Source: Synechococcus sp. 1G10 (lineage in GTDB: Bacteria > Cyanobacteriota > Cyanobacteriia > PCC-6307 > Cyanobiaceae). From it: a stretch of 64,000 nt of DNA. Below, piece after piece: positions 17,040 through 29,244 of the stretch. Each line of letters begins with the position of its first letter. Positions within the stretch are counted from its first letter, which is position 1. The notes under the pieces are model-generated. The model was not told the DNA's origin. It made no database searches and saw nothing but the letters and a program-made list of their open reading frames with translations. Location of the stretch: positions 62,001 through 126,000 of the forward strand of contig NZ_NQKW01000008.1 in the NCBI RefSeq assembly GCF_002252625.1. The letters run 5' to 3'. The position numbers and the translations under genes are program-made.

Positions 17040-17947
17040 ACGATCTCCGCTCCACCGCCAGTTGTGCATCCCCCGATAGGGGGATGTCCCGCGTCAAGCC
17101 CCTTGTCCGGCGCTCAACGTGATTGTCGGCGAACAGGGGGATCCTGAGGCTGGCCTGCTGAATGGCCTCACTTACGGCTACGGCATCCAGCGACCTAATG
17201 ACAGGGAGACGGATGGGGATCTGTGCTCCGATGTGGCAATAAATGCCTCTGTGCAGCTGGGAAGGCTGCAACCGCAGCGCGGAAGCCTGCAGCTTGAGCC
17301 TGGCCACACGGTGGCGCCATACGCCCGACCTTGCAGCCGGCAGCAGCCAGCTCCTGGTTTACTGGTGTACGCGCGGGGAGCCGTAGAAGCCTCGGTGCAG
17401 CTGGAACACCTCCTGCATCTCAGCTGTGATATCGGCGTTCTGGGTCGCCCGCTGTCCCGGCGCCTTGTGCCGCTGTCGCCAGGCGTAGTAACCGCTGCAG
17501 GCCACGCCAATCTGCCGTCACAGCCAGGAGACGGAGCAGCGGCCTTCCAGGTGGTTGATCAGGCGAAACCTCTCGGCGGCAGCTTGTTCGGCGACGATTA
17601 GGTAGCTGCCCGCCTACGTAGTTGACACCGGGCAGACAGCTGCTCCTTTGCAAAGTGCGCTGCCGCCAGCCTGAAAAAATCCTTCTCCCACCTGAGCTCT
17701 CGGCTCTCCTGGCGGAGCCGACTGAGCTCAGCACGCTCCCCTCAGTGGTCAGCAGGCCCTGGTCCCTCGGGCCACTGTCAACACGTTCGACCCGGGCCTG
17801 GCGAACCCAGCTGGCCAGGCTGCTGGAGGGAAGGTCAAGCCGCCGGGCAACAGCAGAGCAGGGAAGGCCCTCCTGAAGGCAGAAGGTGACATACTCCTGT
17901 TTCTGCTGCGCCGTGAACCGGCGCCGGGTCTTGGTGGGTTTGGTCAT
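17040..17947 (-). mobile_element. Decayed IS3-family transposase
   Basis: OrfA starts at 17947 (MTKPTKTRRRFTAQQKQEYV then SAVARRLDLPSSSLASWVRQ), a clear IS3 helix-turn-helix. Downstream the OrfB pieces appear in different frames: a YYAWRQR-type segment near 17.5 kb, RGFYGSPRVHQ near 17.4 kb and RVARLKLQASALRL near 17.3 kb. Several frameshifts and a missing integrase catalytic core show it is dead. I cannot define the terminal repeats, so the bounds are those of recognisable coding sequence. Confidence 0.75.
17067..17086. promoter_or_regulatory. Palindrome CATCCCCC-GATA-GGGGGATG (copy 2)
   Basis: Eight-bp arms around GATA. It lies 166 bases upstream of the uracil-DNA-glycosylase-like gene start and at the 3' edge of the IS3 remnant. 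It has the same 7-bp core arms as copies 1 (12681) and 3 (28390), but a different centre. Confidence 0.6.
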
Positions 17948-18019: not shown

Positions 18020-21000
18020 TCACCCCAACCGATCCCTTGTGATAACCACATAGGACTCGTCCCGTACCTTGTAACCTTCGTTATGGCGTCGAGCAAAGTC
18101 AAGCCCCCGATCGAATAGTACTCGGAATGATTCGCCCCCAGCGACCTTCAGTGATAGTTCACGAGCATGCTTCAGTCGTGGCTCATAACGTCGACGTGCG
18201 TAGTGCCGCCAATCGAGATGAGCAGAGAGAGAGAGTGGAAACGACTGAAGCGCTGTATTGAGCCTAGTTCGACGGGACGTGACTCCATAACGATGTTCTT
18301 CCTCCGTTTCAGCAGTGTGTACCAGGATTGTCGTGTCTTTGTTAAGCCAGGGGCCATTAAGAAGTCCTACAAGCAGCTCGCCGGACCCAGTATCCTGGTT
18401 GTCAAGATAGCGATCGGTGTACTCAGCATGTACTAATCTCCGTCCTTTCAATAGGGATGGTAGTCCGATGAAGTCAGCCAACTGTGCGGCCGTGACATAG
18501 GGTTTAAGCTCTTCTGATCTGGGGCCAGGGAAGACAATCCGGGTATCCTCATCTGCAAGCTCATCAATACCCACCATCCGAGCATTGCTGCGCCATTCAA
18601 GGAGCCTGCTGAGAACAATATTCACGCCTTCAGGGCTGCGAGTTTCTAGACAATCGATCACTTCGCCCTTCTTAGGATGGACGAGTTGAATGGCAGCGCG
18701 ATGTGGTCCATCTGATCCTAAGACCACCGTGTCAGGAACATTCAGGTCAAAGCAAAACAATTCGAGCAGGCCTTGATCGATCCACTGTGAAAGTCGTTTT
18801 CGCAGCACGCGCGTAACCTCGTCGCCACCCGAGGGTGGCAGGTTGCGCAGTATCAATGTAGGTGGGTTACCATCTCTACACCGGTCAATTGTCTTGGTCA
18901 AGAACGAAAACGAAAAGGGTGTCTGAATATTCTGGAGGGCAAGCAAGGTCTGATGTTCTGCAAACTGAGCTGCACGATTGAGAACAGCTGAGATTCGGTC
19001 TGGATTGATGCGGCTGGCGTGCGGTGCAAAACTGATCTGCCGTTCATCAGGGAAGAGCTGTGCGACTATTGGCTGTAAGAAGGTTTGCACACTTCGCCTG
19101 TCTAGCTGGTCGTGAAACAGTTGATTGGTGTAGGTCCGCAAGCAGTCGTAGCAACTGCTCGCACAGCTGCAAGAGCTCACAAGCTCCATTGTTCTCATTA
19201 ACACCTCCTCGAAGCGATCACCTATTCGTTGACTATGCCCAGCTCCGGAGGGTACGTTGTCATAAATGATGAGTTCTGTTACTCCATCCTGATTTTCAAC
19301 AGGACGGAAGAGTCCATCGAGTTCACTCCTTGGCACATCAATGACCTGGGCGGCCGCTGCCAGTACGGCATAGGTCAGCGAACGCCAGAAGCCCACCCCA
19401 CCGGTTAGCTCATCAGGCGAGCCATCACTTTCAGAATCTGGTTGAGAGTGAATCCCATCACCACCTTCGAGGTGGCGGACGGTTGCGTACAGACCTGGAG
19501 CATTGGTTCGCCTTGCGAAGCGAATTCTTACCAGATCACTGCGGAAGCGATGGGCTAGATGCACCTCCTCATAGCGGCCTTCACATGGACTCTGGGTAAT
19601 TGGATTTGTGTGGCTAATTCGTGTGGAGTTTCCAGCTACCGCTCCCGACTTTCGCTTCTTCTTGGCCTCCTCCCTTCGCTGAAGGATCTGCTGGGATAGA
19701 TCCAAGCCACAGCGCGTGCAAAGCTGGAATCCTCCGAGAGCCTTGTTGGGCCCCTGGTTGGAAAGAAAGAACTCACCAGCTTTGCTTGTAACGATCTCGA
19801 TGAAATCAGTATTCCGTGGCTCGGCATCCTGGTTGGCTTGGGCTAGAAAGACCTGAGAGGTGGATTGGCGAACAGGCTTACGGTGAGGGGTTACAGAAGG
19901 CGGTGCATTCCAGTCGGTGGTGAATGCGCGTGGCACCTTGAACGCCTTGGGCTTCCTTGAACCCTTGGTCAGCATGACCCGACACACAGGGCAACAACGC
20001 TCTCCATCCAGCTCTAGCCGCTCCTCAATTGCCTCAGAAGTACTGGCGGCAGTGAAGTAGTTGCAAGCGTAACAGATCCAATACCAATTGGTTTCTATAT
20101 CTCCTGCCCGGACTACGCCAACGCTGCGGTGGACTCGATCATCCACGACAATGTCCTGCCCTGGTGAATATTCACCCAGAGCCAAGCGGCGATCTCTCTG
20201 CAGACGATGACGCCCCTTCCCTCGATAAGTATCTGAGCTGCCCTGGGTGAGGAGCTGGACAACATCTACAGGGAACCCGTAGATCGGCAGGATGCTGGAA
20301 GTAGCCAGTTGCTCATGAAGTTGGCGCTCCCCCACCTTCCGGAGTTGTGCCTCTAAGGCACCCTTGCGGCTGACCATTCCGTTCTGCCTTCTTGCACTCT
20401 CCTTATCGCTTGAGCTAAGTAATTCCATCAGCTCCTTGATCAAGTCCATCCGAAGTTTCGCAAGATCATTCCAAGCCTCTTGCTGATCTTTGCAGAAGTT
20501 CTCTAGAACATCACGAAAGGCATTGATCAGTTTCTGCTCACTTGCACTCGCCCCGAGCCTGTCAAGCCAGAAGCGGATCATCTTGAGGGCCTCGGGCATC
20601 TGCAGCCACTCGTGAAACTCAAGCAACAGTGATGGCTGAACTCCAATCTCAGAAACAGTAAGATTTTCCGGCAGACCAATAAACTCCATGACATCTACCT
20701 TCTCAGCTCCTCGCTGGAGGCTGGTATGTAGGAATCGAGCTAGGAGTTCAGCGCGGATGTGGCGTTGCTGAATGTCGAAGTTTCGAGGGTCTAGACTGGG
20801 AACCTGATTGCTGCCATCAATCAATCTGCCTGGATTGTCAAAGTAATATCGATCGTGGGGCCGTCGTTGGCCATACATCAAGGTGACAGCAACACCATCA
20901 GTGCGACGGCCTGCTCGACCAGCACGCTGCTGATAGTTGCTTACAAATGGAGGGAAATTTCGCATCGCCACGACTTGGAGTTCGCCAATGTCAACTCCCA

Positions 21001-24000
21001 TTTCAAGAGTGGTTGAAGAGCTGAGCAGGTTAATCAGACCGCGGCGGAAACGGTTTTCACGGTCAGAAAGTTCATCAGTCTCAAGTTGGGCCGTGTGCTC
21101 CATCGAACGCAGTGGCAGCGGGGTACGCTGAATGAGCAGTTTGTAGTGATTGGACGGCAGTGCATCACGCTGGAGCTCCAACAGGTTGCCCTGACACTTG
21201 TAGGAGGGGCAGGAGAATGCATTGGCGCTTTTGCTGCGGTTAATGGCGTCCAAGCCTGGTATATGAAAGATATGCCGGCAGTTGGGACAGCGAAACCAGC
21301 CGTCTTCTTGGTTGGTAAGCCTGAGAAGATCCCAGTTCAACTGCAAACGCTCCCCGCGCCGACTGAAGATTTTCTCTTCTACCAGTGCCTCATGCAGAGC
21401 AAACATGGCCTGCTCTGAGGGAAGCTTTCCAAAGAAGCGGGAGGCATAGGTAAGCAATCTGTTCTGAGTACTGTGCCATCCGCCCTTTGCTGTTGGCCGT
21501 GGAGCCAATGTCATTGCGTTCGGCTCGCTTGCTTTCGATTCTCTTTTGAATTTCAGATAGAGAAGCGGGCGGCCCTCGGCGTCCAACGTAGCGGGGATCC
21601 TTCGGGCTGGCTGACCGCCTGTTTCGGGAAAATATCGCGACGAGCCTTCAATGTCAACGGCACCAAGCAATCGTATCAAATCTGTGAAAGTAAACAGGAA
21701 GATGCGGGCTATCGCCTCGGCCTGCTCGCCTTTCAGATCAAAGGCCTTGACAACATTCTCAACGAGTGTGTCACGGAATCCATAGAGGTGGCAGGCAAGC
21801 ATTCCAAGTGACTCCATCGAAAAGCGCCTTGCTGATGGCAAGCCAAACTCCCTAAGCAGGACTTCCCGGGCCCTTTGCCTCGCCAGCTTGCTACAGCGAT
21901 CTGGACTGAGTCTCCTGCTCTCATGCTCATCGTCATAGGTGACATAGCTACGGTGGTGAAGCTCCTCATTACGATCTGGATGGGGAATTGAGATTCGTAG
22001 AAACTTGCGAACGATCTCCTCTTCAACCTCACTGATCGATGCGCCTCCCTTCTCACAAACCTCCTGGAAAGATTGCCACACCACTTGTCTATACAGGTTC
22101 TCTGTATGGGTGCGCTGAAAGTCAGAGGCAAAAAATGCGGCGTCCTGCCGTCCATCGGAAAAGGTCAGCATCTTTCGGCGGCTGCTTTTTGCTGAGGCTG
22201 GGCCTGACTCAGGCAGCAATTCAAAGAGTGTGTCCAGCATCACCTCCAAAGGTGCATCGGTAAAGGAGACAAAGCGACTCAGAGGACTGCTCTGTCCTCG
22301 GCTGGCACCACAGGCCGGGCAACATGACACCATGCCGCCTTCCTGCTGGTTGGCATTCTTAGGCCGAATCCACTGGAGAGGCCAGGCTGCTTCAACCTGC
22401 CCCTTCTGCCCGATCCTTAGCGTCCAGCCAGTTTCAGGCGGAGTTGCCCCCGTCAGGATGACGGGTGTTGGCTGGCATCCACCGTTGAGCACCACATCGC
22501 CTGATTCGGCATCGGCTGCCGCATCAGTGACCTCCTCCCCACTGTCCTCATCACTAGTGATCGACTCGGGGAGCACCGTGACTAGCACTCGCAGATCAGA
22601 TTTGATCTCAAGTGTTTCGAGAGAGCGGGGAAGCGTCTGGAGGAGCTGTGCCTTGGCGAGGGTTAGTCCAAAAGCTTCTCCACACTTTCGGCAACTGGAC
22701 AGCTCAATGACCGGGCCATCGCAAGATTCACAGGCCTCCTTGCTATTTAGGTAGAGCCGCCCCCAGCGCGGACTCAATTCCGTTTGATTCGGGTCCTTAA
22801 TGGCCCCGAAGCAATTGGGATCAACGCAGGCATGTAGGCCTTCAATGCTGCGAAACAGCAAGTGAAGCCGGACCGGGACTAGGGGATGTTGATTTGTTGA
22901 TATGCGGGCGAGAGTACCGATCTGTACAAGGTTGGACAATGCCTTTTCGAGCCTTGGCACCTCTTCTGGTACCACCGCACCATCGAGACATGTGGGCACC
23001 GGCCAAAGCTCTGGGCTTTCGGCTAGATGACGCCAAGGCCTTGGGCCCATGGCAAGGCATGCGATGAGCCGGTGCATCAGAGGATGACTGACAAAAGCCT
23101 CCCAGAGAAACCGGTTGAGATCTCCACCTGCCTTGCTTTTGGCAGCACCCAAATCTGTCTCTGTTACGAAGGCTTTCAGCACTTCACACCAGACTTCGAC
23201 TGGCGCATCAAGGGCAGGAAGCTCGAGATCTGCGACTACCTCATAAAGCTCGCGTTCATCCAGACCATCAGGAAGTGTGCTCGGCGGACGTAGGCGTTCC
23301 TCCACACTCATACGATCGCCCCAGATCACCTGTTGAAAGGGTTCGTCAAAGAGCTGACTAGCAAAGTCTTTAACCCTCACGGGCGTATCAGCTTGGCTGG
23401 GGTCACCCAAGGTGGCGCTAGTAGCTATGCCCTGCATCACGCCGCTTTCACTCAGGCCTACCGCAACCTTGAAGCGGCGGATCAGCATCGATACTTCTGT
23501 GCCGGTAGAGCCGTTGTAGGTGTGTGCCTCATCGACCACCAGCAAGCGGAAGTCAGGAGAGCGCTCGAAGATCTGCGTGCGCTCAGTCGGCCGCACGAGC
23601 ATATGCTCAAGCATCGAGTAGTTGGTGACGAGAATCTGAGGGGGGTTTGCCCAGATCTGCTCACGCGAGACCAGCTGAATTTTGAGGATGCGCTGCATCG
23701 CAGCTTCGACAAGATCGCTGGATGGGCGACGGGCCAAAGCCTCCCTCTCATGGGTTGGCAGTAGCTCCAGTAGCTCTTCACGATCGCTAGCAACAAGCTC
23801 AGCCCTCAACGAGGCAACGCCATCGGTCTCCTTCGTCTCCGTGCGACTCGTGTAGAAGCCGAAGCGGATCAGCTCATGGTCGCTGCTCTGGCGGGAGAGA
23901 AGCAGCCGCAGCCGCTTGACCTGATCGTTGACCAGGGCATTCATCGGATAAAGGATCAGTGCCTGAACACCTCGTCGTGGTGTTCGAAGAAGGTGATCCA

Positions 24001-24385
24001 ACATCGGGATGGCAAAGCATTCGGTCTTGCCTGACCCCGTACCTGTGGCCACAACGATATTCTCTCCATCCTGCACAGCCGAGCGAATCGCTCGCTCTTG
24101 GTGGGTATAGAGAGGCCGATTGGGATCAAAAAGTTTGAGCAGACCGGGATGGAGTACACCTTGCTCAACGAGCTGCAGGAGGGTTGCGCCATTCTGATAG
24201 GGCTGAGTGCCCTCGAGATAGGGATCCTGCGCTACAGCTCCTGGCTCCCGTAGAAGTTTTTCAAACCCGTAGCGCAGGTGGGGGTCGCGAAGGGGGTAGG
24301 CGGTGAGCAAGTAGCGAATCAGGCTCTCCCTGGGTTCTGTGGCGGCCTGCACCGCGTCCAGACCTGCAGTCATAGTTGTTGTCAC
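18020..24385 (-). CDS. Giant DEAH helicase with DUF1998, DruE-like
   Basis: A 2121-aa SF2 helicase: Walker A TGTGSGKT at about 114-121, DEAH at 285-288, motif III SATLGD, and a C-lobe with TTLEMGVDIGEL and QQRAGRAGRR. Cys clusters recur (C.DP.C...C.SC...C.KC near 510-560; CCPACG; CPNC; CYAC with CPVC; CTRCG), and a DUF1998 block (LIIYDNVPSGAGHSQRIGDR, CSCASSCYDCLRTY) lies near 1700-1760. About 350 further residues follow, with LDWRHYARRRYEP...FDRGLDFARRHNEG resembling PLD/MIT-C-terminal-like folds. Size, domain order and operon match DruE of the Druantia defence system. Start is GTG 24385 or ATG 24373, just after the preceding gene. Confidence 0.85.
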   Translation of the reverse strand: MTTTMTAGLDAVQAATEPRESLIRYLLTAYPLRDPHLRYGFEKLLREPGAVAQDPYLEGTQPYQNGATLLQLVEQGVLHPGLLKLFDPNRPLYTHQERAIRSAVQDGENIVVATGTGSGKTECFAIPMLDHLLRTPRRGVQALILYPMNALVNDQVKRLRLLLSRQSSDHELIRFGFYTSRTETKETDGVASLRAELVASDREELLELLPTHEREALARRPSSDLVEAAMQRILKIQLVSREQIWANPPQILVTNYSMLEHMLVRPTERTQIFERSPDFRLLVVDEAHTYNGSTGTEVSMLIRRFKVAVGLSESGVMQGIATSATLGDPSQADTPVRVKDFASQLFDEPFQQVIWGDRMSVEERLRPPSTLPDGLDERELYEVVADLELPALDAPVEVWCEVLKAFVTETDLGAAKSKAGGDLNRFLWEAFVSHPLMHRLIACLAMGPRPWRHLAESPELWPVPTCLDGAVVPEEVPRLEKALSNLVQIGTLARISTNQHPLVPVRLHLLFRSIEGLHACVDPNCFGAIKDPNQTELSPRWGRLYLNSKEACESCDGPVIELSSCRKCGEAFGLTLAKAQLLQTLPRSLETLEIKSDLRVLVTVLPESITSDEDSGEEVTDAAADAESGDVVLNGGCQPTPVILTGATPPETGWTLRIGQKGQVEAAWPLQWIRPKNANQQEGGMVSCCPACGASRGQSSPLSRFVSFTDAPLEVMLDTLFELLPESGPASAKSSRRKMLTFSDGRQDAAFFASDFQRTHTENLYRQVVWQSFQEVCEKGGASISEVEEEIVRKFLRISIPHPDRNEELHHRSYVTYDDEHESRRLSPDRCSKLARQRAREVLLREFGLPSARRFSMESLGMLACHLYGFRDTLVENVVKAFDLKGEQAEAIARIFLFTFTDLIRLLGAVDIEGSSRYFPETGGQPARRIPATLDAEGRPLLYLKFKRESKASEPNAMTLAPRPTAKGGWHSTQNRLLTYASRFFGKLPSEQAMFALHEALVEEKIFSRRGERLQLNWDLLRLTNQEDGWFRCPNCRHIFHIPGLDAINRSKSANAFSCPSYKCQGNLLELQRDALPSNHYKLLIQRTPLPLRSMEHTAQLETDELSDRENRFRRGLINLLSSSTTLEMGVDIGELQVVAMRNFPPFVSNYQQRAGRAGRRTDGVAVTLMYGQRRPHDRYYFDNPGRLIDGSNQVPSLDPRNFDIQQRHIRAELLARFLHTSLQRGAEKVDVMEFIGLPENLTVSEIGVQPSLLLEFHEWLQMPEALKMIRFWLDRLGASASEQKLINAFRDVLENFCKDQQEAWNDLAKLRMDLIKELMELLSSSDKESARRQNGMVSRKGALEAQLRKVGERQLHEQLATSSILPIYGFPVDVVQLLTQGSSDTYRGKGRHRLQRDRRLALGEYSPGQDIVVDDRVHRSVGVVRAGDIETNWYWICYACNYFTAASTSEAIEERLELDGERCCPVCRVMLTKGSRKPKAFKVPRAFTTDWNAPPSVTPHRKPVRQSTSQVFLAQANQDAEPRNTDFIEIVTSKAGEFFLSNQGPNKALGGFQLCTRCGLDLSQQILQRREEAKKKRKSGAVAGNSTRISHTNPITQSPCEGRYEEVHLAHRFRSDLVRIRFARRTNAPGLYATVRHLEGGDGIHSQPDSESDGSPDELTGGVGFWRSLTYAVLAAAAQVIDVPRSELDGLFRPVENQDGVTELIIYDNVPSGAGHSQRIGDRFEEVLMRTMELVSSCSCASSCYDCLRTYTNQLFHDQLDRRSVQTFLQPIVAQLFPDERQISFAPHASRINPDRISAVLNRAAQFAEHQTLLALQNIQTPFSFSFLTKTIDRCRDGNPPTLILRNLPPSGGDEVTRVLRKRLSQWIDQGLLELFCFDLNVPDTVVLGSDGPHRAAIQLVHPKKGEVIDCLETRSPEGVNIVLSRLLEWRSNARMVGIDELADEDTRIVFPGPRSEELKPYVTAAQLADFIGLPSLLKGRRLVHAEYTDRYLDNQDTGSGELLVGLLNGPWLNKDTTILVHTAETEEEHRYGVTSRRTRLNTALQSFPLSLSAHLDWRHYARRRYEPRLKHARELSLKVAGGESFRVLFDRGLDFARRHNEGYKVRDESYVVITRDRLG

Positions 24386-24392
24386 GTTCTGC

Positions 24393-25298
24393 TCAAGCTA
24401 TGAGACCAAGACTGTTGAGGATTGCACGTACCAGTGCACGGTTGCGTGGACGAACCACGCGTGTGCGCCAGAGCTCTGGATGGTGATCCGAAAGCGCCCA
24501 CAGTAGGCGTGCATGGGCAGCAGGTAGCACTACCTTCTGCAGATCAAGGGTGCCGCTGGACTCATGCCATGGCACTGACAAGGGGCAGCAGGCCAATCGA
24601 TCAAGTTCAAACATCGCAAGCAGCGCAGTCTCTTGTCCAAGGCAGAAATACTTCATTTGAACCTGCCATAGCAAAGTGCGGTCAGGTAGCTGTAGTAAAG
24701 CTGAGCGCGGTTTCTCCCTCGGGTGCAGATCAATCCAGCGTTTGACTTGGGTCGCTCCGATCGTGGGAACGTACTGGGCGATGCGATCGAACAAGTGGAA
24801 GGGATCGTGGTCCCAGTGGCCGTCACGCAGTGCCAAATCTGTCGGCAGTTCTGGTTGCGGAAGCACCTCAATGAGTTCACTCCAGGACTGAAGTGGAACC
24901 CCGATGTTATCTAGCCGCTCCCTGGCTCGGACAGGTGGAAGCCGGCTACGAATGCGCGGCTCACTTACCTCTTGATCGGTCTCCAACTGTCGATGCACAG
25001 CTGCGAGATAGGCGCGATCTCCAAGAAAGCGGGCTTCGCCAAAGCCTTCACCGTCAAACACCACGGCTGGACGGGCAGCGCTGAAACACTGGCGCGGCCC
25101 ATTGGTTACTTCACCGCGAGCCACCAGCTCTTTTAGTGCATCGTGAATCTCTTCCTCCTGCGGGGGCTTTCTACCTGGGCCTCGTTCCAATTGCAGCAAC
25201 AGACATAGGCTGCGCAGAGGCACAGGACGAGGGCGATACCGATCGGCTTCGGCCCTATGGCGAGAGAGGATATCAATCAACTCTTCTTGCAAAGCCAT
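24393..25298 (-). CDS. Unknown 301-aa middle gene of the DruE-like operon
   Basis: A 301-aa protein (MALQEELIDILSRHRAEADR). Residues about 25-80 (PVPLRSLCLLLQLERGPG, then EEEIHDALKELVARGEV) look like a winged-helix unit. The middle (ERLDNIGVPLQSWSELIEVL) and C-terminus (LPAAHARLLWALSDHHPELW) match nothing I recognise. Its ATG overlaps the stop of the 1009-aa gene (TAATG), and the giant helicase starts 7 bases beyond its stop, so the three are one translationally coupled operon. I infer an accessory or DNA-recognition subunit. Known Druantia types II/III have different subunit counts, so homology to DruF/G is untested. Confidence 0.75.
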   Translation of the reverse strand: MALQEELIDILSRHRAEADRYRPRPVPLRSLCLLLQLERGPGRKPPQEEEIHDALKELVARGEVTNGPRQCFSAARPAVVFDGEGFGEARFLGDRAYLAAVHRQLETDQEVSEPRIRSRLPPVRARERLDNIGVPLQSWSELIEVLPQPELPTDLALRDGHWDHDPFHLFDRIAQYVPTIGATQVKRWIDLHPREKPRSALLQLPDRTLLWQVQMKYFCLGQETALLAMFELDRLACCPLSVPWHESSGTLDLQKVVLPAAHARLLWALSDHHPELWRTRVVRPRNRALVRAILNSLGLIA

Positions 25299-28200
25299 TA
25301 CGCTATCTTCTCCAGATCGATACCCCAGGAGAGCATCTCAGATGCCGCCACAATCAGGCCGTCGAGATCCTCCTTATGGCTCGCCTGATCAAGCTCAATC
25401 CAGAGTTGATGATCAATCCTCTGGACTCGAATGACATCAGCTGGTATCCCCTCAGCCTGCCTCAGCTTTGTCATGACAGCCTCAAAGTCTTTATGAAGTT
25501 TGATTTTGTTCACGAGTTGAGTTACGGGTGGAGTAAACCTCAGCGAATACGTGAGACCTCTTCGTGGTCCTCTCTGTCGGGATCCCCTGCGGCCTTCAGC
25601 TCCTCGGTGGCCGGGTGGTTTCAGCTCAGCTGATGGAGACCCAGCTGTATCGCTCGGCTGTGCCCAGTACATGAGTTGTAGGGCAAGACGACTTGAATCG
25701 ATCCAGGGCTGCAGCGTCTTGTTGTTCTTCAGATTCGAGATGGCCTCTTGCAGACGATCTCTAGGCAAGGTGGGGGTGATGTCTTTGGCGACTTGTGGGA
25801 AGTCTTCCACTGGTGCTCCATGCAGCAACTGTTCAAGCAGGGCAGAATCTGCACCGATGGGTACCAGATCATGCTGATCACGCAAACCCGACCACCAACC
25901 CAGCTGACGAAGGCGCTGTTGCCCAAGGAACAGCTCCAAGACGAAGATCCCTTCTGGATCAGGAAGCAGCTTCTCCAACTCAAGCAGCATGAGTGGGGAC
26001 TCAGCAAGGATCGCAATCCGCTGGGAGGGCCTTTCTGGGGTGAGAAGATTCCAAGCATGAAGCTCGTAGACTACTCCTGATCGCAAGCCGCCAAGCTCTC
26101 CGCTCTTGCAATCCCAAGTGATACTCTCAGCTTCAGGCTCGCCAAGAACAGCCAAGGGAACCGCCGCCGCATCGCCAATGCGTTGCAAGCTGAGCTGATA
26201 CCAGTCAGAAGGTTCAAGACTATAGCGGAGAATACTTGTCTCAACAACTACCTCGCCGCGTGCCGTTGCTGCTTGCAGGAAAGAATGACTGGATTCTCCG
26301 TTGCGAATCTCAACGCGCATTTGTTCAAAGGGCCACAGCCCACTTACCTTCCACACGGACAACCAAAAGTTGGCAGGATCATCAACACGCTCCGGAGTGG
26401 ACGAGGTGTTGAACGCTTGAATCACAGGTTCAATGATTGGGGGATTGATGAGCTTTTGGATTGTCAGCTGGGACAAGCCAACTAGATCGTTTGCCGTGTC
26501 ATCCAGTTCCAGCCGCAACTGCTGCTGCCAACGGCGAGGGAGTGTTTCGTGATCTTCCTCGACCAAAATCACAATGGAGTAGCGCCCCGAGTGGGTCAGA
26601 AACGCATCGAGATCAATTGCTTGCCAAGCGTCCGCTCTCGGAATGATGTGGACTTCGTCGTCCCTGGTGAGCCAGCTCCGATTGTCGAGATCCTCAATGC
26701 GTAAGCGAAGCGTGGCCGATTCTTCGAGCGGTGGAATCCACAACTTGGGTGCAATGGTAAAAACCTGCTGCCTGCCGAGGAGGCGAGCTCCGCGCAGTTC
26801 AGGGGAGAGCTTGTCCTGGTGGCACCACTCCAGCTGGAACTTAATGTCGCTAGAGCATAATCGGAGGCAGGCTTCTGCTGAGACTTTTTCAACATGGAAC
26901 CCGTGCCAGCCCCGGAGGCTGCATGAGCTCACTCTCTCGATCACTTGGATATCATCGCTAGGCAGAAGTGTGAACTGCCTTGGCGTAAACAGAACCACTT
27001 CCTGCGCATCACCGAGTTCGGCACCCGGGTCTAATCTCTCACCGCTGAGCGGATCAAAGATCAGCACGGGTCGATCCGGATCCGGCCCCTGGCATGACCA
27101 GCTGTAGGCAACAGAGCCGTCCTGAGAGCCAAGACGGAAGTCCCAGTTACATTGAGCAGGGGCCTCTTTCACTAGGTAGCTGACTTCCATGGGTATATCA
27201 AGCACACCCTGCAAGATATCGATGTCGAACTCCGCTCCAGCTGGCTCCAGTACGCCATAGCCGCTCGACAAAGCCTTCCACTCGGGGGCATTCACCTGCT
27301 GTGGAGGCAACACCAGTGTAAGTTCTTCCCAGTCATTCGGGTCCATACGAAGCTTTGGGGGCTGGCTGCGCATAAGCCTGATGCGCCGACCATGAACGGG
27401 TTTTGGGTTAAAGCGCAGCAACGGAACAAGAGAGGCCCAGTCGCGAAGGAAGAAAGCATGAGGCAAATCGAACCCTGCCAGAACCCTTTCCCGCTCGGCG
27501 TTGTTGGCTAGGACACGGGCATCGAGGCCTCGACGATCAAGTTCGGTGGCGATCGTAGCCAGGCTGCTAGTGAGTTCTCCCGAGAGAGGATGCACCGGTT
27601 GATCGTCCTTGGGGCAACTCATCTCTAGGAAGCGCTTGATCGTGAGCCAGCCACGATGATGGCGGGTGCAATGGTTGAGGAGCAGTTGAGCCACCGCCTC
27701 CGGACTGGCATGGGCTATTTCCCACCAGCCATACTCATCACGGAGTTCGCCTAGCAAGGTGGCGAAACACTGCTGATGCTTTACCGGTACACCATTTTGC
27801 AGGTTAAGCGTGCTAACATATAGGTTTCTATCCTCGACAACGCCTTTGGCTTTCACCAAGTCGAGATACCTGAAACCTCGGCGAAGAATCTCTTGAAAGG
27901 TTTGAAGACTTAGCTGCGAGACTGGCAGACCCATGTGCTCCTGAAGCGCTGTCCAAAAGCCACGGATGTCATCAGACTGATAGGCAAACTCAGTAAGGGC
28001 GAGGGTAGTTAGACGGCACCAATATCCCTCCGGATCGACCACGTCATATTCTTTTGAGCATGTGCAGGAAGAAAATGGGCTTAGCCGGCAAAAGTTTGCA
28101 CCTACGGTTTCGATTAATCTCTTCGCTTCCGTAGGATCTATCCGCGCTGAGCCAAGGAAGCGTCGGCTTGACGGTTCCTTATGAATTGCCTCGTCGACAC

Positions 28201-28327
28201 GTAACTCTTCCCAAAGTGCTTTTGCATCACCCCTTGATGAAAAATCAGCGATAGATGTTTTGTGATCGGTCACAGCAGATTTCAAGCCATCTGCTGTTTT
28301 TCTAGGCAATACCTTGCTGATTCGCAT
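25298..28327 (-). CDS. Unknown 1009-aa first gene of the DruE-like operon
   Basis: A 1009-aa protein (MRISKVLPRKTADGLKSAVT) with no catalytic motif I can name. The N-terminal third is helical, with a Cys pair region (FCRLSPFSSCTCSKEYDVVD). The centre is beta-rich with repeated WEL/LVLPP and IRIEDLDNRSW-like segments suggestive of Ig-like modules. Near the C-terminus is a basic linker (GHRGAEGRRGSRQRGPRRG) before a compact domain (LVNKIKLHKDFEAVMTKLRQ). Position and size recall DruH of type III Druantia, but this is inference. It is the promoter-proximal gene; palindrome copy 3 lies 63 bases upstream. Confidence 0.75.
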   Translation of the reverse strand: MRISKVLPRKTADGLKSAVTDHKTSIADFSSRGDAKALWEELRVDEAIHKEPSSRRFLGSARIDPTEAKRLIETVGANFCRLSPFSSCTCSKEYDVVDPEGYWCRLTTLALTEFAYQSDDIRGFWTALQEHMGLPVSQLSLQTFQEILRRGFRYLDLVKAKGVVEDRNLYVSTLNLQNGVPVKHQQCFATLLGELRDEYGWWEIAHASPEAVAQLLLNHCTRHHRGWLTIKRFLEMSCPKDDQPVHPLSGELTSSLATIATELDRRGLDARVLANNAERERVLAGFDLPHAFFLRDWASLVPLLRFNPKPVHGRRIRLMRSQPPKLRMDPNDWEELTLVLPPQQVNAPEWKALSSGYGVLEPAGAEFDIDILQGVLDIPMEVSYLVKEAPAQCNWDFRLGSQDGSVAYSWSCQGPDPDRPVLIFDPLSGERLDPGAELGDAQEVVLFTPRQFTLLPSDDIQVIERVSSCSLRGWHGFHVEKVSAEACLRLCSSDIKFQLEWCHQDKLSPELRGARLLGRQQVFTIAPKLWIPPLEESATLRLRIEDLDNRSWLTRDDEVHIIPRADAWQAIDLDAFLTHSGRYSIVILVEEDHETLPRRWQQQLRLELDDTANDLVGLSQLTIQKLINPPIIEPVIQAFNTSSTPERVDDPANFWLSVWKVSGLWPFEQMRVEIRNGESSHSFLQAATARGEVVVETSILRYSLEPSDWYQLSLQRIGDAAAVPLAVLGEPEAESITWDCKSGELGGLRSGVVYELHAWNLLTPERPSQRIAILAESPLMLLELEKLLPDPEGIFVLELFLGQQRLRQLGWWSGLRDQHDLVPIGADSALLEQLLHGAPVEDFPQVAKDITPTLPRDRLQEAISNLKNNKTLQPWIDSSRLALQLMYWAQPSDTAGSPSAELKPPGHRGAEGRRGSRQRGPRRGLTYSLRFTPPVTQLVNKIKLHKDFEAVMTKLRQAEGIPADVIRVQRIDHQLWIELDQASHKEDLDGLIVAASEMLSWGIDLEKIA

Positions 28328-28432: not shown

Positions 28433-29244
28433 CCCCGCTGGGCCGCTCCCCGCCCAGCTCGAGCAGTTCGGCGCTGGGCAGGCCGCAGTGGCCATCACCG
28501 CTGGCCTCCAGCAGGGCGTAATTGACGCCGGCCCGCAGGCGGATCATCGCCTCAGGCTTGATGCCCAACCGCGCGGCGATCGCATCGGCGGTGCGGAAGC
28601 CGATGCCGCGGATGTCTCGGGCCAGGCGGTAAGGGTTCTCGGCCATCACCTGCACGGCGTCGTTGCCGTACGTCTTGAAGATCCGCACGGCCCGGGCGGT
28701 GCCGACGCCATGGCTGTGCAGAAACACCATGATTTCGCGCACCACCTTCTGATCGGCCCCATGCCTGGCTGATCCGCTGCCCCCGCACCGGGCCGATACC
28801 CGGCACCTCTCGTAGGCGCTCGGGCGCCTGCTCGATCACCTCGAACACCTGATCGCCGAACACCGCCACAAGCTTGCTGGCATAGATCGGGCCGATGCCC
28901 CGGATCATTCCCGAGCCCAGGTACTTCTCGATGCCCTCGGCGGTTGTAGGCGCCGAGGCCTTGAGGAAGGAGGCCTTGAACTGCTGGCCGTGCTCGCGGT
29001 TGTTCACCCAGGTGCCGCTCACCGTCACCCACTCGCCGGCGCTGATCTCAGCGGCATGGCCCACCACCGTCACCAGGTCGCGATGGCCGCGGGCCTTGAT
29101 GCGCAGCACGCAGAAGCCGTTCTCGGCGTTGTGGAAGGTGACGCGCTCGATCGATCCCGCCAGCACCTCGGTGGGTTGCGGACTGGCCTGGGCAGAATCG
29201 GTGGGAGACGGGCGTGTCAGGGCGGAAGTGGCCTGTGGGCTCAC
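28433..29244 (-). pseudogene. recD2: Truncated, frameshifted recD2 helicase
   Basis: From GTG 29244 the frame gives the RecD2 N-terminal OB/HhH region: EVLAGSIERVTFHNAENGFC, GEWVTVSGTWVNNREHGQQF, KYLGSGMIRGIGPIYASKLV, REVPGIGPVRGQRISQAW. A G run at 28757-28760 carries one base too many. After it the homology continues in another frame: DQKVVREIMVFLHSHGVGTA, RDIRGIGFRTADAIAARLGI, NYALLEASGDGHCGLP. Homology stops near 28430-28450, before the helicase core (Walker A is absent). About two thirds of the gene is missing, so the DruE-like operon replaced or deleted the rest. Confidence 0.85.

What the first reader, a model, noticed from the sequence alone, without database searches (positions are those of the whole stretch)
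18020..28327. Three-gene Druantia-like operon with an unassigned middle gene
A 2121-aa DEAH helicase with DUF1998 and many Cys clusters is coupled (TAATG overlap, 7-base gap) to a 301-aa and a 1009-aa gene that I cannot name. Giant DUF1998 helicases (DruE) define Druantia, but the accessory set seen here (one large and one mid-size unknown protein, no methyltransferase, no DUF4338 gene) does not obviously match the described types. This may be a new subtype.
Basis: partly seen in the sequence, partly recalled or inferred. Interest (0 to 1): 0.78.

Follow-up and report, generated by a model that had tools for sequence, protein, structure and literature searches.

The report
Three-gene cyanobacterial Druantia, type I/III hybrid
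A rare set of three cyanobacterial genes looks like an anti-virus defence system of the Druantia kind that combines a sensor-like part known from one Druantia type with a small part known from another, which suggests that the types share more than the one helicase they are said to share.

Summary
In detail: three same-strand, closely coupled genes code for 1009, 301 and 2121 aa. The 2121-aa protein is DruE (PADLOC DruE1, 704 bits), with helicase core, MZB/DUF1998 and a C-terminal region like that of type III DruE. The other two match no PADLOC model, and no Pfam or NCBIfam model convincingly. The order large-middle-DruE recurs in 13 cyanobacterial loci, window included, three of them on plasmids; distances between the three proteins correlate (Mantel r 0.92-0.96, 12 loci).

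Profile-profile comparison assigns both unknowns, in each case only through intermediates. The 301-aa protein is a divergent DruD, a type I component. The 1009-aa protein belongs to a wider DruH family, the type III partner. Reversed and shuffled controls give at most 1.1%. The DruE tree puts the cyanobacterial clade next to a type III-like branch, where 0 of 39 loci have a DruD that these HMMs recognise. So this is a new Druantia variant: DruH-like + DruD + DruE, without DruA. Predicted mechanism: Ig-domain infection sensor, winged-helix adaptor, helicase-nuclease effector. Function is inferred; nothing was tested against phage.

The parts
25298..28327 (-). Large subunit, 1009 aa: divergent member of the DruH family (putative infection sensor)
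   Evidence: ORF; profile-profile to large partners of type III-like DruE 97.7-98.7%, E 1.8e-12 to 2e-16, 565-572 columns; those to 11 DruH 95.0%, E 3.7e-8, 635 columns
27473..28234 (-). Helical N-terminal domain of the large subunit (residues ~32-285)
   Evidence: AlphaFold2 model, helices H32-41 to H276-282
25880..27355 (-). Array of beta-sandwich (Ig/FnIII-like) domains of the large subunit (residues ~325-816)
   Evidence: AlphaFold2 model; VIA-align best Z 8.6, matches to FnIII/Ig-like domains spanning mainly residues 416-729
24393..25298 (-). Middle subunit, 301 aa: divergent DruD (winged-helix protein, putative DNA-binding adaptor)
   Evidence: Profile-profile to deltaproteobacterial DruD-like proteins 96.8%, E 2.6e-10, 252 columns; PADLOC DruD1 hits two of those at 8.2e-13 and 2.2e-10
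25068..25298 (-). Winged-helix domain of the middle subunit (residues 1-77)
   Evidence: AlphaFold2 model pLDDT 90.9; VIA-align Z up to 10.0 to winged-helix domains, e.g. Stn1 C-terminal domain, rmsd 2.5 over 69 residues
18020..24385 (-). DruE, 2121 aa YprA-family SF2 helicase
   Evidence: PADLOC DruE models; PDB chain 9tu7_Y ('DEAD/DEAH box helicase', 2108 aa, presumably DruE), E 6.3e-76
23759..24106 (-). DruE DEAD/DEAH domain (residues 94-209)
   Evidence: Pfam PF00270
20903..21115 (-). DruE Helicase_C domain (residues 1091-1161)
   Evidence: Pfam PF00271
19139..19375 (-). DruE MZB/DUF1998 zinc-binding domain (residues 1671-1749)
   Evidence: Pfam PF09369
18023..19063 (-). DruE C-terminal region (residues ~1775-2121), like the tandem PLD-like region of type III DruE
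   Evidence: Profile-profile of 11 cyanobacterial C-termini to two type III ones: 95.7%, E 1e-8, 289 columns; that the type III region is PLD-like is from PMC12458937 section 8

Best explanation
This is a three-component anti-phage system of the Druantia kind: DruH-like sensor, DruD-like adaptor, DruE effector. The DruH-like protein (helical domain plus tandem Ig-like domains) recognises a phage structural protein late in infection. The winged-helix DruD-like protein binds DNA or the helicase and couples the sensor to DruE. DruE loads on 3' single-stranded DNA of phage replication intermediates, unwinds it and, through its C-terminal PLD-like region, degrades it or blocks its replication. Shown here: gene order, DruE identity, remote homology of the two partners, and inheritance as a unit. 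Inferred from published work on type III: sensing by DruH, 3' loading and nuclease action of DruE. Guess: the adaptor role of DruD.
For: DruE identity. Triad in 13 cyanobacterial loci, plus partial and decayed ones. Correlated inheritance (Mantel r 0.96, 0.95, 0.92; p 1e-4) and purifying selection. Middle = DruD: the HMM of 10 cyanobacterial sequences finds, besides the cyanobacterial-type loci, only L065 and L041, at about 8e-9 among 1269 ORFs; PADLOC DruD1 finds the same proteins; profile-profile in both directions, with reversed and 8 shuffled controls at 0.6% or less. Large = DruH family; an HMM of type III-like partners hits 6 of 19 cyanobacterial loci at E 1e-3 or better. Fold of the large subunit (helical, then beta-sandwich array) follows the published order in DruH (helical N-terminus, three Ig-like domains; PMC13192584 section 13). 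C-terminus as in type III DruE. Acquired, mobile setting: GC of the triad 54.5%, against 57-60% in the 7-8 kb on either side and 64% further out; three loci on plasmids; integrase genes near L017, L018, L019.
Against: No phage test of this triad is known to me. Direct comparison of the cyanobacterial middle set with type I DruD alone is not significant (0.3%), and of the large set with DruH alone is weak (3.9% with 3 DruH; 11% with 12 rows of which one proved not to be DruH; 4.2% with the 11 good rows): both links need intermediates. Foldseek of the large model shows no DruH among its 50 rows; the solved DruH 9tud may not be in that library. The model is only moderate (pLDDT 67.8, pTM 0.38). 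Several loci are decayed or broken (L150, L151, L152).
Confidence: 0.6

Rival explanations
1. It is a plain type III (III-B-like) Druantia of DruH-like + DruE; the 301-aa gene is an unrelated winged-helix regulator that happens to sit in the operon.
For: DruE groups next to the type III-like branch; winged-helix domains are common in regulators; direct middle-to-type-I-DruD comparison is not significant.
Against: The match to DruD-like proteins covers 252-278 columns, far beyond the winged helix; the gene lies between the other two in all 13 loci counted; its distances follow those of the large subunit at r 0.96.
Confidence: 0.17
2. It is a reduced type I Druantia that lost DruA; the large gene is the counterpart of the ~970-aa protein between DruA and DruD in type I variants.
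For: Same order large-DruD-DruE in type I variants; the ~970-aa proteins match a DruH-family profile built without cyanobacteria at 90.5-92.6%, E 1.3e-6 to 4.6e-7, over 335 or 169 columns.
Against: The DruE tree separates the cyanobacterial clade from type I; holding it with the DruD-bearing type I and deltaproteobacterial rows is rejected (AU p 0.014, quick tree, groups named after a first tree was seen). The large protein matches type III-like partners far better than type I ones (97.7% against 0.2%). DruE C-terminus is of the type III kind; type I DruE have some 90-120 residues there.
Confidence: 0.15
3. It is a DNA-repair or plasmid-maintenance helicase operon, not a defence system.
For: YprA-family helicases include repair enzymes (PMC12458937 section 5); three loci are on plasmids.
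Against: DruE models score far above any repair helicase model shown; sporadic distribution (6 of 149 and 4 of 386 genomes, own genome included in both), decayed copies and mobile setting fit defence better than housekeeping.
Confidence: 0.08

Closest known systems
Druantia type III (DruH-DruE), as in E. coli
   Same: Large Ig-domain subunit of the DruH family; DruE with C-terminal PLD-like region; no DruA
   Different: Extra DruD-like gene; large subunit only remotely related to DruH; DruE in another branch of the tree
Druantia type III-like branch (which I take to be III-B of PMC12458937; equivalence not tested)
   Same: Nearest DruE branch; nearest large subunits
   Different: 0 of 39 such loci have a DruD found by the HMMs used (some of these contigs end near DruE); most of their DruE lack the long C-terminal region, 11 of 13 cyanobacterial ones have it
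Druantia type I (DruA-DruB-DruC-DruD-DruE, recalled) and its DruA-[~970 aa]-DruD-DruE variant
   Same: DruD between large subunit and DruE; same order
   Different: No DruA, no DruB; DruE and large subunit closer to the type III side
Druantia type IV (DruE, DruF, DruL; PADLOC, PMC8565338 passages)
   Same: DruE plus two other genes
   Different: No PADLOC model of any name matches the two accessory proteins

Membership tests
Druantia (any type) | DruE helicase with MZB/DUF1998 | tested here: met
   DruE1 704 bits and MZB 53.7 bits; on the Druantia side of trees with ARMADA as outgroup
Druantia type III | DruH gene | tested here: inconclusive
   No PADLOC DruH hit (positive control L087 2e-129); remote DruH-family membership by profile-profile through intermediates
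Druantia type III | Two components only, DruH and DruE (abstracts of PMC13316683 and PMC13192584) | tested here: not met
   A third, conserved, coupled gene lies between them
Druantia type I | DruA (DUF4338) | tested here: not met
   DruA HMM from two sequences: 0 of 19 cyanobacterial loci, 9 of 12 type I variant loci. Own genome with PADLOC DruA1: 0 matches, but nothing rang in the 14 controls either
Druantia type I | DruD | tested here: met
   Remote only: by intermediates, both directions; no direct PADLOC hit and no significant direct profile match to type I DruD
Druantia type I | DruB and DruC | tested here: not met
   No PADLOC hit for the window proteins; three of 12 alignment members hit DruC1, in the two re-scanned over coiled coil that JetC and LmuB hit too; profile-profile to clostridial DruC-position proteins 1.4%
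Druantia type II / IV | DruM, DruF, DruG / DruF, DruL | tested here: not met
   No PADLOC hit for the two accessory proteins at E 1 or better; remote relationship to these was not tested
[quoted passage not shown]
   Neither gene in the operon; DruE outside the ARMADA clade
Druantia (any type) | Protection against phage | not testable with these tools
   No experiment here

The most novel reading that the evidence does not exclude
The partner proteins of DruE are not type-specific inventions. A DruH-family sensor and DruE form the shared core of type III, type III-like, cyanobacterial and DruA-bearing type I variants; DruD is an older adaptor kept in type I and in cyanobacteria and lost in type III; DruA and the rest are add-ons. 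[quoted passage not shown] The cyanobacterial triad is the bridge that shows it.
Probability: 0.45. Interest if true: 0.72.

Novelty: new variant of a known kind. Interest (0 to 1): 0.57.

Why it matters
How Druantia senses phage and how its types are related are open questions. A minimal three-gene system that carries both the type III sensor family and the type I DruD offers a direct test of what DruD does (add or remove it next to a DruH-DruE pair), and suggests that the types share a sensor-helicase core, which would change how the types are named and searched for.

Tried and rejected
Direct profile search of the two accessory proteins: nothing convincing (members of the middle alignment in Pfam). 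DruC identity of the large protein: three of 12 alignment members hit DruC1; in L018 and L023, re-scanned, the hit falls in coiled coil together with JetC and LmuB, so not counted. Fusion hypothesis (that type III large subunits carry a fused DruD): 6 DruD sets against 11 other sets gave 0.8% at most, rejected. Type I counterpart of the large gene: cyanobacterial set against type I variant, clostridial and deltaproteobacterial counterparts 0.2%, 1.4%, 0.7%; a joint DruH-family profile later reached the type I variant at 77.4% (148 columns), 62.6% (51 sequences) and 90.5% (no cyanobacteria), 92.6% after cleaning, but 10-13% with DruH alone. Relatives of the middle protein in viral contigs: none by peptide patterns of the single protein. 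Fold search of the large subunit in the PDB and viral libraries: only generic beta-sandwich matches. The middle protein beyond residue ~95 matched nothing convincing. phmmer of the DruE C-terminus alone: nothing.

Rows dropped and mended: the DruE trees left out L029, L033, L034 (same places as L020, L021, L024) and DruE ORFs under 1300 aa; one search used 47 of 93 rows. One search used 12 of 13 loci (L018 left out, its large gene is in two ORFs). The DruH set held one wrong ORF (L141), found in a later check; without it the result stands (95.0% instead of 94.6%), but searches used the uncleaned set. HMM hits of a family in the loci from which its HMM was built are by construction. Groups came from gene neighbours and blastp clusters of 130 proteins.
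Full report
OBSERVATION. Three minus-strand ORFs lie at 25298-28327 (1009 aa), 24393-25298 (301 aa) and 18020-24385 (2121 aa), with a one-base overlap and a 7-base gap. The 2121-aa protein matches PADLOC DruE models best (DruE1 704, DruE3 642, DruE2 528, DruE4 481 bits), and has DEAD, Helicase_C and MZB/DUF1998 domains. In the PDB it matches a 2108-residue helicase, 9tu7_Y, at 6.3e-76; a near entry code, 9tud, is named DruH, so 9tu7 is presumably DruE. The 301-aa and 1009-aa proteins have no hit in PADLOC up to E 1; the 1009-aa protein has none in Pfam and NCBIfam, the 301-aa protein only matches at E 0.02 and 0.24 far below cut-offs.

CONSERVATION. The window lies in a 3.34-Mb genome of 84 contigs. 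Among 149 sampled relatives, 6 have the middle gene and 9 the large gene, own genome included, one of the 9 a broken remnant. In an even sample of 386 genomes of the phylum, 4 have the middle gene, own genome included, one of them only as a 41-residue piece. Plasmids of Nostoc, Microchaete/Tolypothrix and Pseudanabaena carry the set. I count 13 loci with large-middle-DruE in this order: window, L016, L017, L018 (large gene in two ORFs), L019, L020, L021 (short DruE), L023, L024, L025, L030, L031, L149. L032, titled as a Chitinophagaceae MAG, has the three genes too, but the large one is cut by the contig end and 1.7 kb lie between middle gene and DruE. L150 has the first two intact and a broken DruE behind a PIN-domain gene. 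L151 and L152 are decayed; L022 and L055 are short contigs. In 12 of the 13, gaps between genes are -44 to +36 bases; mean identities are 0.318 (large), 0.366 (middle) and 0.504 (DruE); distances correlate (large-middle 0.96, large-DruE 0.95, middle-DruE 0.92, each p 1e-4); dN/dS is 0.13-0.29 in three close pairs. The set thus evolves as a unit under purifying selection. Its GC is 54.5%; the 8 kb below it has 57%, the 7.6 kb above it 60%, and the rest of the window 64%. Integrase genes lie near L017, L018 and L019.

REFERENCE SYSTEMS. There is a clear break among the 80: cyanobacterial-type DruE at 43-57% identity, the rest mostly 23-30%, a few 31-41% in their best segment. I classed loci by neighbours: type III with DruH (L050, L087; PADLOC DruH 6e-111, 2e-129), ARMADA, a type III-like branch with one large gene directly before DruE, clostridial type I-like sets, and type I variants DruA-[~970 aa]-DruD-DruE. 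The last is anchored by L128 (DruA1 1e-196, DruD1 5e-130, DruE1 2043 bits) and by plasmid pNWAT01 of Nitrosococcus watsonii, whose record names DruA.

MIDDLE GENE = DruD. An HMM of 10 cyanobacterial sequences finds, beyond the cyanobacterial-type loci (L032 included), only L065 and L041 among 1269 ORFs, at about 8e-9; PADLOC DruD1 finds the same two at 8.2e-13 and 2.2e-10. hhalign: cyanobacterial against deltaproteobacterial set (3 sequences) 96.8%, E 2.6e-10, 252 columns; type I DruD against that set 96.8%, E 3.1e-10, 326 columns. Joining the intermediates to either side links the other: 91.5% and 91.4%, 270 and 278 columns. Against this: without intermediates cyanobacterial and type I DruD give 0.3%. 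Controls for these pairs: reversed templates and 8 column shuffles gave at most 0.6%; 6 DruD sets against 11 other sets at most 0.8%. The model (pLDDT 90.9) has an N-terminal winged helix (VIA-align Z up to 10.0); the rest has no convincing match.

LARGE GENE = DruH FAMILY. hhalign of the cyanobacterial set against 14 type III-like large partners: 97.7%, E 1.8e-12, 565 columns (98.7%, 2e-16, 572 columns on a second run with default pseudocounts). These partners against DruH: 94.6%, E 7e-8, 635 columns with 12 rows; one row proved wrong, and with the 11 good ones it is 95.0%, E 3.7e-8, 635 columns. Direct cyanobacterial against DruH: 3.9%, 11% and 4.2%, so the link is by intermediates. Reversed and shuffled controls gave 0.3% or less. 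A sequence-profile HMM of the partners hits 6 of 19 cyanobacterial loci. PADLOC recognises none of seven large partners from this branch as DruH. The AlphaFold2 model (pLDDT 67.8) has a helical domain at ~32-285 and beta-sandwich domains at ~325-816, the same order as published for DruH (helical N-terminus; Ig-like domains 257-464, 465-631, 632-748; PMC13192584 section 13). Fold searches gave only generic FnIII/Ig matches. Four relatives (L018, L022, L023, L150) start with a hydrophobic stretch (Kyte-Doolittle 1.7-2.2); in L018, L022 and L023 it is followed by coiled-coil-like sequence (by eye; L018 and L023 also by JetC/LmuB matches), suggesting a membrane-tethered form. The window protein has none.

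DruE. Its C-terminal region (11 sequences) matches that of two type III DruE at 95.7%, E 1e-8, 289 columns, and of two Chloroflexota DruE at 96.4%; controls for the type III pair 1.1% or less. PMC12458937 (section 8) says that type III DruE has two PLD-like domains and that the type III-like branch most often has no nuclease. A tree of 93 DruE (FastTree) and one of 47 place the cyanobacterial clade (support 100) as sister to the type III-like branch (98 SH-like; SH-aLRT 92). Holding it with DruD-bearing type I and deltaproteobacterial rows is rejected, p-AU 0.0143, and with DruH-type III rows, 0.0142 (quick tree, groups named after a first tree was seen). HMMs of DruD hit 0 of 39 loci of the type III-like branch, 0 of 6 type III and 0 of 12 ARMADA loci; some of these contigs end close to DruE, so a few may be cut. 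DruD was thus either lost in type III lineages or gained by the cyanobacterial one.

WIDER POINT. A DruH-family profile built without cyanobacteria also reaches the ~970-aa protein of the type I variants at 90.5%, E 1.3e-6, 335 columns (controls 0.1% or less), and at 92.6%, E 4.6e-7, 169 columns after cleaning (controls 0.1% or less). A larger set drops to 62.6%, and DruH alone gives 10-13%. If real, DruE is not the only component shared across types, contrary to the Discussion of PMC13192584.

MECHANISM. By analogy with E. coli type III (PMC13192584 sections 9, 13, 16): the large subunit senses a late phage structural protein, DruE loads on 3'-tailed DNA and its C-terminal domains cut. The winged-helix DruD-like protein would bind DNA or bridge sensor and helicase. 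The last step is my inference.

PRIOR WORK. Seen: PMC12458937 (abstract, sections 5, 7, 8, figure legends, passages), PMC13192584 (abstract, sections 9, 13, 16, passages), PMC13316683 (abstract and outline), PMC8565338 (passages). Searches. No paper of the library holds both DruD and DruH as whole words; Druantia with cyanobacteria gives four papers, of which I read PMC12458937 in part and saw the other three in the listing only. Supplementary tables were not readable here, so the clade may be among the nearly 52,000 sequences of PMC12458937 without being described in the text I read. The founding description of Druantia types I-III, and the type I gene list, are recalled, not read.

Noticed in passing
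window 28458-29157: A 5' piece of a recD2-like helicase gene (TIGR01448 positions 1-233, in two pieces) lies directly upstream of the triad; two matches over the full model length are elsewhere in the genome.
   Followed up: partly
window 17420-17947: A transposase-type HTH protein (HTH_Tnp_1) lies directly downstream of DruE; with the lower GC this fits an inserted stretch.
   Followed up: no
L128 2274-13052; L130 7762-18508; also L077, L080, L085, L100, L102, L106, L108, L110, L112: A type I variant, DruA-[~970 aa]-DruD-DruE, in several phyla and in viral contigs, in some loci followed by a ~410-aa gene; the ~970-aa protein of L128 has no PADLOC hit and the family may belong to DruH.
   Followed up: partly
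L065 3-16609: A deltaproteobacterial locus combines DruD, a GajB-like helicase protein, DruE and a DruK-like PD-(D/E)XK nuclease with two unassigned genes and one that weakly matches restriction enzymes, an arrangement I could not place in a known type.
   Followed up: no
L018 9029, L022 2593, L023 5739, L150 5771: Some large subunits begin with a hydrophobic segment, in three of them followed by coiled-coil-like sequence, suggesting a membrane-anchored sensor form.
   Followed up: partly
L150 10161-10595: A PIN-domain gene sits between the middle gene and a broken DruE.
   Followed up: no
L016 7789-29743: The Pseudanabaena plasmid carries, around the triad, a WYL-domain gene, a protein with both RecQ-like and UvrD-like helicase parts, and a second DruE-related helicase of 1896 aa facing DruE.
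   Followed up: no
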